DNA of 64,000 nt, taken from IMG/VR virus record IMGVR_UViG_3300023240_001391, positions 1 to 64,000 of that record; one strand, given 5' to 3'. Positions 7,834 through 61,362 of this stretch are shown here, piece by piece. The first letter of the stretch is position 1. Each line of letters starts with the position of its first letter. Made by a program: the position numbers and the translations under genes. The notes beneath the pieces are model-generated. The model made no database searches. It had not been told where the DNA came from and was given only the letters and a program-made list of their open reading frames with translations. This DNA comes from a virus.

Positions 7834-9225
<1,392 letters not shown>

Positions 9226-29467: not shown

Positions 29468-30246
29468 TTGGCTATTTCAATTATTATTCGTACCTTTGTA
29501 GGGAATTTGGTGTTAATTTTCGAAAATCGGTAGGAATCCAATAATGACTAAAGATTAATTTGGCCATTTCAACTATTATTCGTATCTTTAGAGGGGGGCT
29601 TGATGCTAAATTTATTATAAAACAACCAATACAGGCGATCTATTGGGGTGGAGACTACTTTGATGGCTTATAGAGACGAGGAAATTGTTTAGAAATCCAA
29701 AATGGCTATATATCACCCTCTGACTATGCTGCGACATCAATAAAATCTATTAGAAATCCAATAGAGTGGTGTGATTATCAGTATATTACAGTAATCAGAA
29801 TGGCATAAGAATCCAATAGTATCTCAGTGCGCCGTAGGAATCCAATAATGACTAATTATTGATTTGGATATCTCAATTATTTTTCGTAACTTAGGATGGG
29901 ATGGTCATGCGACTGAATTATTAATATGGCATGGGAATCCAATAATGACTAAAGATTAATTTGGCCATTTCAATTATTTTTCGTAACTTAGGATGGGATG
30001 GTCATGCGACTTAATTTGTGATCTGCCGTAGGAATCCAATAATGGCTAAAGATTGATAGGAATCCAATAGTGGTTATCTATTAATAGGAATCCAATAATG
30101 GCTAAAAATTGATTTGGCCATCTCGATTATTTTTCGTAACTTTGGATGGGACGGTCACCTCACGTGTCCAGTTGGGAATCCAATAATGGCTAAAAATTGA
30201 TTTGGTTAATTCAATTATTTTTCGTAACTTTGGATGGGACGGTCAC
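29468..30246 (+). repeat. Tandem promoter-repeat array with variable inserts
   Basis: Six promoters, each TTG, exactly 20 bases, then TACCTTTG (29491), TATCTTTA (29583), TAACTTAG (29887 and 29984) or TAACTTTG (30137 and 30225). Five lie in a repeat of about 75 bases beginning GGAATCCAATAATG and, in the last four, ending GGATGGGAYGGTCA. Between repeat ends and the next GGAATCC are unrelated inserts of roughly 16-26 bases. Two extra GGAATCCAATA half-copies are at 30031 and 30059. No gene follows any of the promoters directly. Confidence 0.85.
29652..29673 (+). repeat. 22-base direct repeat, copy 2
   Basis: Second copy of the ACTACTTTGATGGCTTATAG segment. Confidence 0.8.
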
Positions 30247-57295: not shown

Positions 57296-57369
57296 GGGGT
57301 CTTAGCTCAGTTGGCCAGAGCACTGGATTTGCAATTCAGATGTCAGGGGTTCGAATCCCCTAGGCTCCA
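57296..57369 (+). tRNA. tRNA-Ala (TGC)
   Basis: Acceptor GGGGTCT/AGGCTCC, anticodon TGC at 57330-57332. Confidence 0.95.
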
Positions 57370-57388
57370 CTTTTTTAAATTAATAGAT

Positions 57389-57877
57389 ATGAAGATAATA
57401 TTTTTAGATATTGATGGTGTTATGGTTCCCGATTACCAAAAGGTAAATGATCAAGCATTTCCTAAAGATAATGATTGGGATGCAAAACCATTTTCTCAAA
57501 AAGGAATGATAACGTTAAATAATGCAATTTTATCAACTGATGCTAGAGTAGTTATTAGTTCAGATTGGAGAAAGCATTATTCGTTACAGGTTATGAGAGA
57601 TATTTTTGTAGCAGCTGGAATTCTTTATGGTGAAGATACTATTATTGGATATACTAAAATAATAGGATATGGTGATTATAAATCTAATAGAGCACAAGAA
57701 ATTCTAGAATGGGTTAGTCTACATAGACCAGATCAATGGGTTGCTATTGATGATTTAGATTTATCACCATACTTATCAGAGGATAACTTTGTCCACTGTA
57801 AATACCCAATTGAGGGTATTAAACAACTCGGCAAACGAGCAGAGATTGAAATAAAATTAGGAAGAATTAAACAATAA
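57389..57877 (+). CDS. HAD-like hydrolase, 162 aa
   Basis: MKIIFLDIDGVMVPD has the DxD nucleophile motif, VVISSDWRKHYS the second HAD motif, and WVAIDDLDLSPYL the acidic pair. The type ('ISSDWR', HAD-like domain) is common in phages and bacteria; substrate unknown. Start at ATG 57389, because the longer frame runs through the tRNA-Ala gene. Confidence 0.8.
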   Translation: MKIIFLDIDGVMVPDYQKVNDQAFPKDNDWDAKPFSQKGMITLNNAILSTDARVVISSDWRKHYSLQVMRDIFVAAGILYGEDTIIGYTKIIGYGDYKSNRAQEILEWVSLHRPDQWVAIDDLDLSPYLSEDNFVHCKYPIEGIKQLGKRAEIEIKLGRIKQ

Positions 57878-57895
57878 CGATTGTTTATAATAATT

Positions 57896-58290
57896 GGGGC
57901 TGACTTGGAATTGATTAGCAGATCTAGTTTATGTGAGTGCAATCAGAGAAATGTCATCTATCTCTATAATCTATGGTGATAATAGTTAAACGACGAAAAG
58001 TCAGATTTTACCTTCGAAGATGCAATGTCTTTCGTAGGTGGTGAGTTCGCTCTAGCAGCGTAGCCGATGGGTGATAACTACCTAGAAACAGAAAGTTATA
58101 AGTGGGTGCTAACTACCTTAAAGTGTAGTAGGATAGTGGAAATCCGTTATGAGAATGTTTTTACAAAGTTGACATTATAAACCACATCAATAATTTTGGT
58201 ATTTTGTTTATTTAGAAAAATGAACTATGATTGTGAATGAATTTGTATGACGTGCTGAATAAGACGAGGGTTCGAATCCCTCCAGCTCCA
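57896..58290 (+). ncRNA. ssrA: Transfer-messenger RNA (tmRNA)
   Basis: 5' end GGGGCTGACTTGGAATTGAT and 3' end GAGGG-TTCGAAT-CCCTC-CAGCTCCA are the tmRNA halves, pairing as GGGGCTG/CAGCTCC. The tag frame after AATAGTT reads from AAC 57989 to the stop at 58061, beginning NDEKSD and ending GGEFALAA: 24 residues rather than the usual 9-11, but with the ALAA end recognised by Clp proteases. The exact resume codon is uncertain by one or two codons. It rescues stalled ribosomes and marks proteins for degradation. No CCA is encoded. Confidence 0.92.
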
Positions 58291-58369: not shown

Positions 58370-58443
58370 GCGTGAGTAGCTCAGTTGGTCAGAGCGTTTG
58401 GTTTCCAACCAAAGGGTCGTGGGTTCGAATCCCACCTTGCGCT
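58370..58443 (+). tRNA. tRNA-Gly (TCC)
   Basis: Acceptor GCGTGAG/CTTGCGC, anticodon TCC at 58404-58406, discriminator T. Confidence 0.95.
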
Positions 58444-58617: not shown

Positions 58618-59214
58618 ATGAAAGTAGTAACATTAGAGAACCTAGCATACGCTATTAAATACGGTAACAAATCATCAGTTAATGAGGCCTCATTAAATAG
58701 GGTATATCAACATACTCAAAAAGAAGCATCTGATAGCTTTTCTATAATCACCGCATATCGTGGTGGTAATAGTAAATCAGATAACACAAAAAGAAATAAA
58801 CGATTGGAATCTGATGTTAGATCATTAGGATTGGGTTTCTTTAAAGTTAAAGGTTATTGGATGGAATGTAAGAGTGCTGATATTGATTACTCTAAATGTC
58901 CTGATGATATGAAGATACCAGTAGTTGAAGAATCGTTATTCATTCCCAATATAACTAAATCAAATGCAGTTAGGTTAGCAAAGAAATACGATCAAGATGC
59001 TATCATCTATCAAGGTAAAGAAACCAACGATACTGTTGAATTGATTTCAAAATCAGGTGGTTCTATTGATAAAATTGGTAAGTTTTCAGCTGGGAAAATA
59101 GCAAGAGCATATACTAAGGTTAAAGGTAAATCATTTACGTTTGAAGGATTTGAGTATAAACCAAATGGGATGTTAACTAGAATGGCATTTGAATCGATAA
59201 TGAAGAAAGTATGA
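58618..59214 (+). CDS. Phage unknown protein (DUF3293-like), 198 aa
   Basis: FSIITAYRGGNSKSDNTKRNKRLESDVRSLGLGFFKVKGYW...EESLFIPN...AVRLAKKYDQDAIIYQG follows the DUF3293 layout. Known only as a conserved phage and bacterial protein. Four-base overlap with the next gene. Confidence 0.65.
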   Translation: MKVVTLENLAYAIKYGNKSSVNEASLNRVYQHTQKEASDSFSIITAYRGGNSKSDNTKRNKRLESDVRSLGLGFFKVKGYWMECKSADIDYSKCPDDMKIPVVEESLFIPNITKSNAVRLAKKYDQDAIIYQGKETNDTVELISKSGGSIDKIGKFSAGKIARAYTKVKGKSFTFEGFEYKPNGMLTRMAFESIMKKV

Positions 59215-59474
59215 GGTGGGAGAATGTAAGTTTACCTAATAAGATACAATATCTTAAACAATTAATGAATAATTCTACAGTAGATGTAAGTAGAGATGTC
59301 GATGTCATAGATGCATTAATCACAGGTTCAACGACACCATTTTATATGGATGATGAACTTCAATTTAAAATGCAAGATTCACATATTACATACATGAAAA
59401 ATTTATGGAATGTAGTTGTAGGTTTACAAAAAAATCAATCAATAATTGATTTAATTAAAAGTGAAGTAAAATAA
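59211..59474 (+). CDS. Small unknown protein, 87 aa
   Basis: ATGA overlap with the previous gene. LPNKIQYLKQLMNNSTVDVS, helical with DDELQFKMQDSHITYMKNLW. Family unknown. Confidence 0.65.
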   Translation: MRWENVSLPNKIQYLKQLMNNSTVDVSRDVDVIDALITGSTTPFYMDDELQFKMQDSHITYMKNLWNVVVGLQKNQSIIDLIKSEVK

Positions 59475-59503
59475 TATTTAACATTAATTTAACATCAAAA
59501 GTT

Positions 59504-59533
59504 TTGTTAAGTTAATTTTAATACTTATATTAG
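59504..59533 (+). promoter_or_regulatory. Promoter before second tRNA-Gly
   Basis: TTG at 59504, 19 bases, TATATTAG at 59526. Confidence 0.6.
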
Positions 59534-59570
59534 CACGGTTGAAACGATAATGATTGTGGAAACTATAAAT

Positions 59571-59643
59571 GCGGGTGAGGGGTTAAGGGAATACCCGTTT
59601 AACTTCCAGTTAGAAGAAGGTGGGTCAGTTCCATCCACCCGCT
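59571..59643 (+). tRNA. tRNA-Gly (TCC), aberrant T-arm
   Basis: Acceptor GCGGGTG/CACCCGC, D-stem GGGT/ACCC, anticodon TCC at 59605-59607, discriminator T. The T-arm GGTGG-GTCAGTT-CCATC lacks the universal TTC loop, so elongation-factor binding may differ from the 58370 gene. Confidence 0.8.
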
Positions 59644-59677
59644 CAAAAAGATTTAACATTAATTTAACATATTAAAT

Positions 59678-59708
59678 TTGGATATCTTATTTAAGTTTCG
59701 TATATTGT
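59678..59708 (+). promoter_or_regulatory. Promoter of the large structured RNA
   Basis: TTG at 59678, 20 bases, TATATTGT at 59701; then CGTTCTTTGAAAGTATTG, which resembles a boxA-like antitermination leader of rRNA operons. Confidence 0.7.
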
Positions 59709-59714
59709 GGGTGT

Positions 59715-60848
59715 TAAATAAGTAAAGAAATCGTTCTTTGAAAGTATTGAAAGTATTAAACTAAATACATGATTAATCCTACTTCGGTAGTAGGCACCGA
59801 TTTGGCATCGGGGTTGAAGATAATCTACGTATTACCACTGTCCAATGGGAGTTTAATAATATTGGGTAGTTTGATATCCAATTAAAGTATCATCGATGTG
59901 TAACAGCCAGGCTGACAATAAGTTGATAGTTTAATAAAGAATAGAAATCCGTAAGGATTTTGAAAGGTGATATATCACATCTCATCGCTAATTCGTTAGT
60001 TCATTTAAACAAGCAACATCTTACCTGATACTCAAATCAGGCCATCATTACCAAATGGTGGATATAGCAGTAAGTTGATGTAATCGGGCCCTTGAGAAAG
60101 GATACGTTCAGAGCCATTCGGTGAGAACTAATAAGTGTAGTAACTTACCCCATTACAAACTAAATCAATGTAGTTAGAATAGGATAAGTTGTAGAGTGTG
60201 AGTTTGATTCCTTGCTAGGGATAAGGCGAACATTCAGTATGAAAGGTAAAAGGATTCGTATAGAATTCGTAGTAATCTTAAAATACCGCACAGTAGGATT
60301 TGCAATCCGAAACGTATGAGGTGTGTTGTATTTTGTATCTCAAAAGGGTATGAAGCAACTGTTGAAGCACACCTTCGTGAATTTAAACTTTGTAAGTTAG
60401 CTCAGTTGGTAGAGCATTTGCCTCAGAAGCAGATTGTCGGTGGTTCAAATCCATCACTTACTATCATATAGATAGAAAAAAGCAAAGACTTCAACAGTTA
60501 TGGAAAACAAATCACCTAATCCTACACTCTTAGGAGAATGTAGGTTCGTAGAAGCTCGCAAGGCAGAAATGAATTGATTGAATTCTGCACTTAATCACTT
60601 CGCGGTGATGAATGGCTCGCAAGGTCAGAGGAAAGATGAAAGTTGAGTAGTTCCATAATGATATGAGTATAGCCACTCATTAAAAAAGGCGGTGATGTTG
60701 TCATACATTCGTGTTGAATGTGGATACGTTATTAACAATAGAGGTCGCACTTTATTGGCACGGTAACAAAAGTGATAACATAAGAGGTTTAATCTCAACC
60801 TACCAATTAAATTCTCAATACATACGTTATTAACGTTCTGTTAATAAT
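59715..60848 (+). ncRNA. Candidate large ornate RNA, about 1.1 kb, with embedded tRNA-like gene
   Basis: No coding frame. Dense hairpins: CCTAC/GTAGG (59779), CCGAT/ATCGG, AATCC/GGATT, a three-way junction ACATCTTAC/GTAAG..GATGT (60018-60081), AGGTGTG/CACACCT, CCTACA/TGTAGG, ATCAC/GTGAT, ACATTC/GAATGT, CACTTT/AAAGTG and TTATTAAC/GTTAATAA (60827-60847). AACTGTTGAAG (60357) and CTTCAACAGTT (60489) pair around the tRNA-like gene at 60391. The word GCTCGCAAGG occurs twice. Size, tRNA-cluster location, own promoter and embedded tRNA recall GOLLD or ROOL RNAs of phages; membership is not proven. Confidence 0.6.
60391..60463 (+). tRNA. tRNA with CAG anticodon on a class I body
   Basis: Acceptor TGTAAGT/ACTTACT with a T1-T72 mismatch, normal D- and T-arms, anticodon CAG at 60424-60426. 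CAG reads the Leu codon CTG, but Leu tRNAs have a long variable arm and this one does not. Confidence 0.75.
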
Positions 60849-60859
60849 TCACAAATGGC

Positions 60860-60890
60860 TTGTTTATTCAAGTATTTTTTCATATATTAC
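60860..60890 (+). promoter_or_regulatory. Promoter giving a nearly leaderless mRNA
   Basis: TTG at 60860, 20 bases, TATATTAC at 60883, ATG at 60894: the same tight spacing as at 22200. Confidence 0.7.
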
Positions 60891-60893
60891 ATC

Positions 60894-61163
60894 ATGTCGA
60901 ACTTAAAAGATCATTGGAAACATAAGATAGGAAATAAACCTGTCCATCACTTTACCTCAGAACATTTTCCAGTAGAATTGATTATATTATCTGCTGGAAT
61001 GATGTGTGATTCCCGTGGTGAATACGTAGAACATTATCATGTAATTGATTGTTCATCTGATTCTCCACCAAATATCACACCACCATCATTGGGATTATCA
61101 ACCGAAAAAGAATTAGAATTCAGATTTAATATAAATTTTAAACAAATAACAAATAACAAATAA
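60894..61163 (+). CDS. Unknown protein, 89 aa
   Basis: Start at ATG 60894, after the promoter. LKDHWKHKIGNKPVHHFTSEHFPVELIILSAG, His-rich start. Family unknown. Confidence 0.65.
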   Translation: MSNLKDHWKHKIGNKPVHHFTSEHFPVELIILSAGMMCDSRGEYVEHYHVIDCSSDSPPNITPPSLGLSTEKELEFRFNINFKQITNNK

Positions 61164-61164
61164 T

Positions 61165-61362
61165 ATGAATTGGTATTCAGTAAAAGTAAAAGTAATTACC
61201 GATAACGGTAAGACAACAAAAAAAGTAACAGAGCAATATTTAGTTAATGCGGTATCAGTATCAGATGGAGAAGTTAAGATACATGAGTTGTTCAAAAGTT
61301 CAGGGTTGGAATATGAAGTTTCCTCAGTGACTGCAACTAAAATTCTTGAGGTAATTAATTAA
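61165..61362 (+). CDS. Small unknown protein, 65 aa
   Basis: MNWYSVKVKVITDNGKTTKK then YLVNAVSVSDGEVKIHELF; matches the layout of the DUF4494-type small proteins of Bacteroidetes mobile elements. Function unknown. Confidence 0.7.
   Translation: MNWYSVKVKVITDNGKTTKKVTEQYLVNAVSVSDGEVKIHELFKSSGLEYEVSSVTATKILEVIN

What the first reader, a model, noticed from the sequence alone, without database searches (positions are those of the whole stretch)
59678..60848. About 1.1-kb ornate RNA with its own promoter and an embedded tRNA-like gene
No protein frame, more than ten hairpins, a three-way junction, a boxA-like leader, and an 11-bp perfect stem (60357/60489) that encloses a tRNA-like gene. Large phage RNAs such as GOLLD and ROOL are known near tRNA genes; this could be a new class or a divergent member.
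Basis: partly seen in the sequence, partly recalled or inferred. Interest (0 to 1): 0.9.

Follow-up and report, generated by a model that had tools for sequence, protein, structure and literature searches.

The report
Phage GOLLD RNA holding tRNA-like domain
The stretch is a viral gene for a known giant RNA (GOLLD, a relative of which builds a hollow RNA cage); comparison with relatives suggests that the tRNA inside it is usually kept for its shape rather than for making protein, and that a good part of these RNAs begin with the signal that bacteria use to transcribe ribosomal RNA.

Summary
60318-60801 is a full-length match to Rfam GOLLD (RF02032, 184.7 bits, gathering 150), so it is not a new class; ROOL did not match. 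On 32 GOLLD cores the structure covaries strongly (77.8% of cells paired, 58.6% in shuffles). The tRNA sits in that linker, as the 2025 GOLLD cryo-EM paper says tRNAs sometimes do.

Two results go beyond what my literature searches found. (1) Linker tRNAs occur in 44 of 55 loci. In the 36 that ARAGORN parses, D, anticodon and T arms are intact but 35 have a mispaired acceptor stem (30 of 177 other tRNAs do), and anticodons change freely among close relatives: a tRNA-shaped domain more than a decoding tRNA. The window's copy is a mild case. (2) The RNA has its own promoter and a boxA (59733-59743) like that of Bacteroidota rRNA leaders; 9 of 32 GOLLD clusters have one near the expected 5' end (1.8% of control tiles).

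New member of a known kind; function unproven.

The parts
59678..59708 (+). promoter TTGG-N19-TATATTGT of the GOLLD gene (transcription start inferred near 59713)
59733..59743 (+). boxA-like antitermination element GTTCTTTGAAA
   Evidence: only exact match in the window; same motif in 9 of 32 GOLLD clusters and in 9 of 13 Bacteroidota 16S rRNA leaders with at least 436 nt upstream
59713..60317 (+). 5' region of the RNA (the part that forms the cap domain in the solved GOLLD), boundaries inferred
   Evidence: ORF-free, folds with z -2.83; no blastn similarity to the other GOLLD loci before about 60223, in line with the published variable 5' region
60318..60801 (+). conserved GOLLD 3' domain, Rfam RF02032 positions 1-416
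   Evidence: 184.7 bits, E 2.3e-50; covariation
60357..60367 (+). 5' strand of the helix that closes the linker (7-bp covarying core 60361-60367)
   Evidence: (48 of 55 loci perfect as aligned, 3 more when shifted one column), helix 3
60489..60499 (+). 3' strand of the helix that closes the linker (core 60489-60495)
60390..60465 (+). tRNA-like domain in the linker: anticodon CAG on a short (class I) body, U-U at the first acceptor pair, no encoded CCA
60599..60604 (+). hairpin loop TTCGCG at the place of TTAGCG in most relatives; candidate for the self-complementary kissing loop L21a
   Evidence: alignment; mapping to the published L21a is inferred from the distance along the model
60554..60564 (+). 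conserved GCTCGCAAGGC hairpin (used as search pattern)
60615..60624 (+). second conserved GCTCGCAAGG hairpin (used as search pattern)

Best explanation
A GOLLD RNA gene of a tailed phage whose host is probably a Bacteroidota bacterium. Steps: (a) shown: the 3' domain is GOLLD; its pairs, and the helix that clamps the linker, are conserved by compensatory change. (b) well supported by sequence, not by experiment: the RNA is made from its own promoter and carries at its 5' end the boxA of its host's rRNA operons, so that NusB/S10 (NusE) and partners join the polymerase and carry it through more than 1 kb of untranslated RNA without Rho termination. (c) by homology: the RNA assembles into a closed multimeric cage (14-mer in the solved relative) with the linker inside. 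(d) supported at family level, weaker for this copy: the linker shows inside the cage a tRNA-shaped domain that is held, not released or charged; its fold is under selection, its acceptor end and anticodon are not. (e) inference: the domain acts by shape, as a tRNA mimic that holds or sequesters something that grips the tRNA elbow and anticodon arm (ribosome, or a tRNA-directed nuclease), late in infection.
For: Rfam 184.7 bits, full length. Covariation: 77.8% of cells paired against 58.6% shuffled and 34.7-42.1% slid; linker helix 93.8%, 6 of 7 pairs changed on both sides. Promoter family 26 against 1.9. boxA: 25 of 50 upstream kilobases hold YTCTTTRA against 2.7 expected; 9 of 32 clusters against 1.8% of 4,924 tiles, p 4e-9; head of the tRNA-GOLLD stretch in 3 of 4 named phages checked; GTTCTTTRA 81-216 nt before 16S in 9 of 13 Bacteroidota leaders; published boxA consensus GYTCTTTAANA (PMC5725501, passage). 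Linker tRNA in 44 of 55 loci, 25 of 33 clusters; acceptor perfect in 1 of 36 against 147 of 177; in 16 loci with related bodies acceptor pair 2 is made in 1 of 16, while acceptor pairs 4-7, D and T stems are made in all and the anticodon stem in 79 of 80 cells; 13 anticodon loops among 17 tRNAs of one cluster at >= 80% identity. Cage, linker inside, ribosome pull-down: PMC12286853.
Against: The window's own tRNA is good (64.8 bits, 6 of 7 acceptor pairs); 3 of its 26 other tRNAs also have a mismatch. ARAGORN needs intact T and anticodon arms, so the all-linker comparison is biased towards them. 11 of 55 linkers have no tRNA by Rfam, so it is not needed for GOLLD; one is a permuted tRNA with a perfect acceptor (L160) and one encodes CCA (L163), which points to repeated capture of real tRNAs. 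boxA is missing at the expected place in 23 of 32 clusters and wholly in phage Phosso; the window's version has G for A at one place of the published consensus; alphaproteobacterial 16S leaders gave the motif in 1 of 9. No transcript, cage or binding data for this RNA. Steps (c)-(e) untested here.
Confidence: 0.72

Rival explanations
1. The linker tRNA is a working tRNA: RNase P and the 3' processing enzymes cut it out, the phage's own CCA-adding enzyme finishes it, and the two GOLLD halves stay joined by the clamp helix. GOLLD then doubles as a tRNA precursor.
For: Window copy scores 64.8 bits and keeps 6 of 7 acceptor pairs; its anticodon CAG is not among the window's 26 other tRNAs; the window encodes a protein like phage tRNA nucleotidyltransferases (28-2331) and an RtcB-type ligase (7840-9225); the clamp helix would hold a cut RNA together; L163 and L132 end in CCA.
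Against: Acceptor mispaired in 35 of 36 parsed linker tRNAs; 12 of 44 Rfam matches stop short of both acceptor ends; all 11 with Leu or Ser anticodons are 71-77 nt, without the long variable arm (24 of 32 Leu/Ser controls are 83-92 nt); 6 of 36 have 6- or 8-nt anticodon loops (2 of 177 controls). No expression of the pseudo-tRNA was detected in a mycobacterial GOLLD (PMC6582537, passage).
Confidence: 0.2
2. Neutral landing pad: the linker points into empty space and tolerates insertions; tRNAs from the neighbouring array fall in by recombination and decay there, without function.
For: 8 of the 55 linkers are short or degenerate without any tRNA reading that I could see and 3 more (L147, L153, L160) hold broken or permuted tRNA pieces; the linker is disordered in the solved structure (PMC12286853); tRNA arrays lie next to GOLLD.
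Against: In the 16-locus group D, T and inner acceptor stems are paired in every cell while their bases change (for example T pairs 1-2: 5 and 4 pair types, 16 of 16 paired; shuffle expectation 0.49-0.51); free decay would break them. The outer acceptor strand pairs better with the linker's own 3' end: 19 of 20 loci with TTCGC have GCGAA, 8 of 8 with TTGC have GCAA.
Confidence: 0.2
3. The boxA is not for antitermination of GOLLD but is a bait: an abundant RNA with boxA titrates NusB/S10 from rRNA operons and so shuts host ribosome synthesis.
For: boxA is necessary and sufficient for NusB/S10 loading (PMC10250234, passages); the boxA lies in the RNA itself, about 20 nt from its inferred start.
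Against: In MD18, DSS3P8 and DSS3_MAL1 the boxA heads a stretch with tRNAs before GOLLD, where it would be cut away; only 9 of 32 clusters have it near the 5' end.
Confidence: 0.08
4. A new RNA class that only resembles GOLLD.
For: The 5' half has no detectable blastn similarity to the other loci.
Against: Full-length hit 34.7 bits over the gathering score, all 416 model positions; covariation with 31 other GOLLD cores.
Confidence: 0.01

Closest known systems
GOLLD RNA (Rfam RF02032)
   Same: 3' domain sequence and pairs, linker position, phage and tRNA-array setting, about 1.1 kb with a variable 5' region, tRNA in the linker (reported as sometimes present, PMC12286853 section 9)
   Different: No difference in kind. 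Features that I did not find in print for GOLLD: boxA leader; the tRNA's degenerate acceptor and drifting anticodon as a family trait
ROOL RNA
   Same: Large phage RNA near tRNA islands, cage-forming, unresolved linker inside (PMC12286853)
   Different: No match of the window to ROOL at E <= 1; sequence and structure unrelated according to the same paper
rRNA operon leaders (boxB-boxA; rrnTAC)
   Same: boxA motif soon after the promoter of a long untranslated RNA; small hairpin just before it in some loci (4 of 9 representatives with z below -1, the window not among them)
   Different: No boxC or processing helix looked for; antitermination not shown
tRNA-like pieces of tmRNA, viral tRNA-like structures and bacterial Y RNAs (recalled)
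   Same: tRNA fold used without decoding
   Different: Here inside the linker of a cage-forming RNA, with an open acceptor end rather than a charged one

Membership tests
GOLLD (RF02032) | covariance-model score above the curated gathering score | tested here: met
   184.7 against 150 bits, positions 1-416
GOLLD (RF02032) | conserved 3' domain secondary structure with compensatory changes | tested here: met
   helices 5, 6, 15 and 16 are poorly paired in the MAFFT alignment (32-47%)
GOLLD (RF02032) | variable linker in the 3' domain, sometimes with a tRNA | tested here: met
   tRNA inserted at model position about 66-108
GOLLD (RF02032) | phage or prophage location near tRNA genes | tested here: met
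   virus record G000, 27 tRNAs and a tmRNA in the window
GOLLD (RF02032) | less conserved 5' region forming the cap domain | tested here: inconclusive
   about 600 nt of ORF-free, folded RNA upstream; no model of the 5' domain to test against
GOLLD (RF02032) | self-complementary kissing loop L21a (GC or CG in the loop) | tested here: inconclusive
   GC kept at 60602-60603; that this loop is L21a is inferred
GOLLD (RF02032) | 14-subunit RNA cage | not testable with these tools
   published for the env-38 GOLLD (PMC12286853)
ROOL | match to the Rfam model | tested here: not met
   no ROOL match at E <= 1 over 59200-61200
functional tRNA-Leu | long variable arm (class II) | tested here: not met
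   76 nt; the window's other four Leu tRNAs are 84-87 nt
functional tRNA-Leu | fully paired acceptor stem | tested here: not met
   6 of 7, U-U at pair 1; 23 of the window's 26 other tRNAs have 7 of 7
boxA element | published consensus GYTCTTTAANA (gammaproteobacteria) | tested here: inconclusive
   GTTCTTTGAAA: G at the place of the first A after TTT; the same G is usual in Bacteroidota 16S leaders (8 of the 9 loci with the motif near 16S differ from A there or not: GTTCTTTGA in 7, GTTCTTTAA in 2)
boxA element | NusB/S10 binding and antitermination | not testable with these tools
   needs experiment

The most novel reading that the evidence does not exclude
GOLLD genes are built like miniature rRNA operons: a host-matched boxA loads the rRNA antitermination complex onto the polymerase, and the finished cage displays in its lumen many copies of a tRNA-shaped, non-decoding domain whose elbow and stems are under selection while its anticodon is free to change, as expected of a tRNA decoy or ribosome trap made by the phage.
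Probability: 0.35. Interest if true: 0.8.

Novelty: new member of a known kind. Interest (0 to 1): 0.52.

Why it matters
GOLLD has a solved structure but no known function (PMC12286853). If its linker tRNAs are selected for shape, the cage has a cargo that can be tested; if its leader is a boxA, the phage uses the host's rRNA transcription machinery to make it, which would explain how a kilobase of untranslated RNA is made in bulk. Cultured phages of harmless marine bacteria carry both versions (with and without the linker tRNA), so both ideas can be tested directly.

Tried and rejected
A new class or ROOL: rejected. Host range from cellular genomes: the search pattern gave 116 stretches in genome contigs (80 listed); 36 of the 80 listed loci, in 31 genomes, were searched with RF02032 and none matched, and the control genomes did not ring either, so this says nothing on absence. 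Phages holding DNA like the window's GOLLD: only tRNA-sized or 46-nt matches. Synteny: relatives of the upstream gene (L006-L008) share none of the six further neighbouring proteins tested and L006-L008 have no GOLLD match. A first regular-expression count of the clamp helix picked wrong 3' strands in many loci (own 4.5 of 7, swapped 3.9) and was replaced by the alignment-based count. E. coli-type promoter scan: not above shuffles (12 found, mean 7.8). Bacteroidota promoter pattern TTTG-N19-TANNTTTG: 24 found, 16.8 expected, 7 of 100 shuffles reach it, not convincing; the TTGG form is. boxA test choices: the 350-800 nt range and the leading G were fixed after seeing the hits; the control uses the same pattern. 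With the same pattern up to 6 kb upstream, 13 of 27 clusters had a sense hit and 3 an antisense hit. A profile built without the tested cluster beat all 40 shuffles in 9 of 31 clusters, on the antisense strand in 0 of 31, downstream in 2 of 31. A hairpin before boxA is clear in only 4 of 9 representatives and absent in the window.

Rows dropped: loci L191-L193 (fragments or 17 bits); identical cores (64 loci to 56); L190 (cut in the linker) from linker and helix counts; L189 from the 32-row alignment (one row per cluster otherwise). L154 is misparsed by ARAGORN (91 nt); without it the count is 1 perfect acceptor of 35. The sample is biased: relatives were found with an exact pattern of two GOLLD hairpins, so their invariance means nothing. 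Loci within a cluster are related; by cluster, 1 of 20 has only perfect acceptors.

Full report
What it is. cmscan of the whole window finds one GOLLD RNA, 60318-60801 on the + strand, 184.7 bits against a gathering score of 150, all 416 model positions. The same calls find the tRNA 60391-60463 (64.8 bits), which ARAGORN gives as Leu(CAG), 60390-60465. The record is a virus record of 80,553 bases; its GOLLD stretch is identical in three other contigs, one of 174,750 bases. Window proteins include matches to phage tRNA nucleotidyltransferase, RtcB ligase, GroEL and thymidylate synthase and, just upstream of GOLLD, an S-adenosylmethionine lyase-like protein. The thymidylate synthase is closest to that of Flavobacterium phage immuto (59%); GroEL gives Bacteroides and Flavobacterium phages among others. 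With the boxA form below this makes a Bacteroidota host likely, not certain.

Relatives. An exact pattern of two GOLLD hairpins gave 119 stretches in viral contigs (capped). RF02032 was found in 65 of 121 viral records searched, over the cut-off in 58. The window plus loci L128-L190 make 64 loci, 56 with different cores, 33 clusters at 80% identity.

Structure test. On 32 cores (window and 31 others) the Rfam structure plus the linker helix has 77.8% of cells paired (58.6% shuffled; 34.7-42.1% slid), 666 cells changed on both sides (221 shuffled), covariation score 0.542 (0.176), 0 of 500 shuffles as high for any measure. Helices 5, 6, 15 and 16 pair in fewer than half of the cells in this MAFFT alignment. 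The structure was read from the Rfam fit to the window, which favours it over the slid versions.

The 11-bp stem. Its core, 60361-60367 with 60489-60495, is not in the pairing line of the Rfam model because it crosses the first stem. It is perfect in 48 of 55 loci as aligned and in 3 more when the alignment is shifted by one column; positions 3 to 6 use three or four Watson-Crick types. In one search it pairs in 93.8% of cells, with changes on both sides in 6 of 7 pairs. I could not check whether it is one of the numbered stems P1-P27 of the cryo-EM paper.

The linker tRNA. Rfam finds a tRNA of at least 29 bits in the linker of 44 of 55 loci, 25 of 33 clusters. In 12 of the 44 the match stops short at both acceptor ends (model 3-68 or less); among the other tRNA rows of those calls that are not cut by a locus end I saw one such case (L128:2580-2648). 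ARAGORN parses 36 linker tRNAs. Against 177 other tRNAs of the same loci: acceptor perfect 1 of 36 against 147 of 177; anticodon loop not 7 nt 6 of 36 against 2 of 177; T loop beginning TTC 36 of 36 against 152 of 177. ARAGORN favours intact T and anticodon arms in both sets. The 11 with Leu or Ser anticodons are all 71-77 nt; 24 of 32 Leu/Ser controls are 83-92 nt, 8 are 71-79. In 16 loci with related bodies the outer acceptor pairs fail (pair 2 made in 1 of 16) while inner acceptor, D and T pairs are made in every cell and the anticodon stem in 79 of 80, with base changes. In the largest cluster 17 tRNAs have 13 different anticodon loops. The outer acceptor strand seems to pair with the linker's own 3' end instead (TTCGC with GCGAA in 19 of 20 loci, TTGC with GCAA in 8 of 8). 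My reading: a tRNA-shaped domain fused to GOLLD. For the window copy the case is weak: 6 of 7 acceptor pairs, U-U at the first; 23 of its 26 other tRNAs have 7 of 7; the stronger oddity is a CAG anticodon on a short body while the four other Leu tRNAs have 84-87 nt.

Three named phages confirm the pattern: MD18, DSS3_MAL1 and Sinorhizobium phage Phosso have a linker tRNA (47.2, 46.2 and 54.1 bits), DSS3P8 and vB_RpoS-V10 have GOLLD without one. In MD18 and DSS3_MAL1 it is annotated as tRNA-Arg.

Leader. The promoter at 59678-59708 belongs to a family of 26 sites against 1.9 expected. About 25 nt after it lies GTTCTTTGAAA (59733-59743), unique in the window as an exact match. YTCTTTRA occurs in 25 of 50 kilobases upstream of GOLLD 3' domains, 2.7 expected, mostly 350-650 nt upstream, where the RNA should begin; downstream there are 3 hits in 71,688 bases. 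By cluster, 9 of 32 have GYTCTTTRA 350-800 nt upstream, against 89 of 4,924 tiles of 450 nt. In Bacteroidota, GTTCTTTRA lies 81-216 nt before 16S in 9 of 13 leaders with enough upstream sequence, one of them reading GTTCTTTGAAAGTTTGGAAG against GTTCTTTGAAAGTATTGAAAG in the window. In 9 alphaproteobacterial leaders only 1 had the motif, although the roseophage form GCTCTTTGACAATTTGG resembles it. In MD18, DSS3P8 and DSS3_MAL1 the only sense hit in 5.5-6.4 kb heads the tRNA-GOLLD stretch, with none antisense; Phosso has none. The published boxA consensus is GYTCTTTAANA, and boxA recruits NusB and S10 (PMC5725501 and PMC10250234, passages). That GOLLD is antiterminated is inference.

Function. 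The cryo-EM paper (abstract, sections 7-9 and 19 read) gives a 14-mer cage, linker inside, expression rising in lysis, ribosome pull-down and no known function. A GOLLD-sized RNA is the most abundant ICP1 transcript (PMC7567579, passages). I commit to a boxA-driven, cage-forming RNA that holds a tRNA mimic; what the mimic binds is open.

Literature. GOLLD with boxA gave 4 papers that by title have nothing to do with RNA cages, GOLLD with 'antiterminat' one, whose passages concern phage P4 Psu. Other searches. Weinberg 2009 and Morgado 2020 are not held, so earlier remarks on either point may exist.

Noticed in passing
L160:1569-1665: The GOLLD linker holds a circularly permuted tRNA: T arm, acceptor 3' strand and CCA first, then acceptor 5' strand, D arm and anticodon arm. 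Put in ordinary order ARAGORN reads a complete cloverleaf, Ile(GAT), with a fully paired acceptor.
   Followed up: partly
59571-59642: A 72-nt cloverleaf with a possible TCC anticodon and an odd T loop (GTCAGTT), missed by ARAGORN and Rfam, between two copies of TTAACATTAATTTAACAT and after a promoter-like site at 59503-59533. Poorly alike to the tRNA-Gly at 58370.
   Followed up: partly
28-2331, 7840-9225, 57344-57877, 58618-59214: RNA-repair and counter-defence genes near a full tRNA set: tRNA nucleotidyltransferase, RtcB ligase, HAD of RNA-repair proteins, S-adenosylmethionine lyase family.
   Followed up: no
57896-58290: Phage-encoded tmRNA with its own tag peptide.
   Followed up: no
29468-30232: Six near-identical promoter sites of the same family within 0.8 kb.
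   Followed up: no
60843-60888: 46 nt just after GOLLD 89% identical to an intergenic stretch of Flavobacterium phage immuto; perhaps a shared promoter.
   Followed up: no
L140:1564-1638: Linker tRNA with anticodon CTA (would read the stop codon UAG).
   Followed up: no
L310, L311, L313, L314: Roseophage GOLLD is followed by a permuted tmRNA; in KT870145 and MH015255 neither has an annotated feature in the stretch shown.
   Followed up: no
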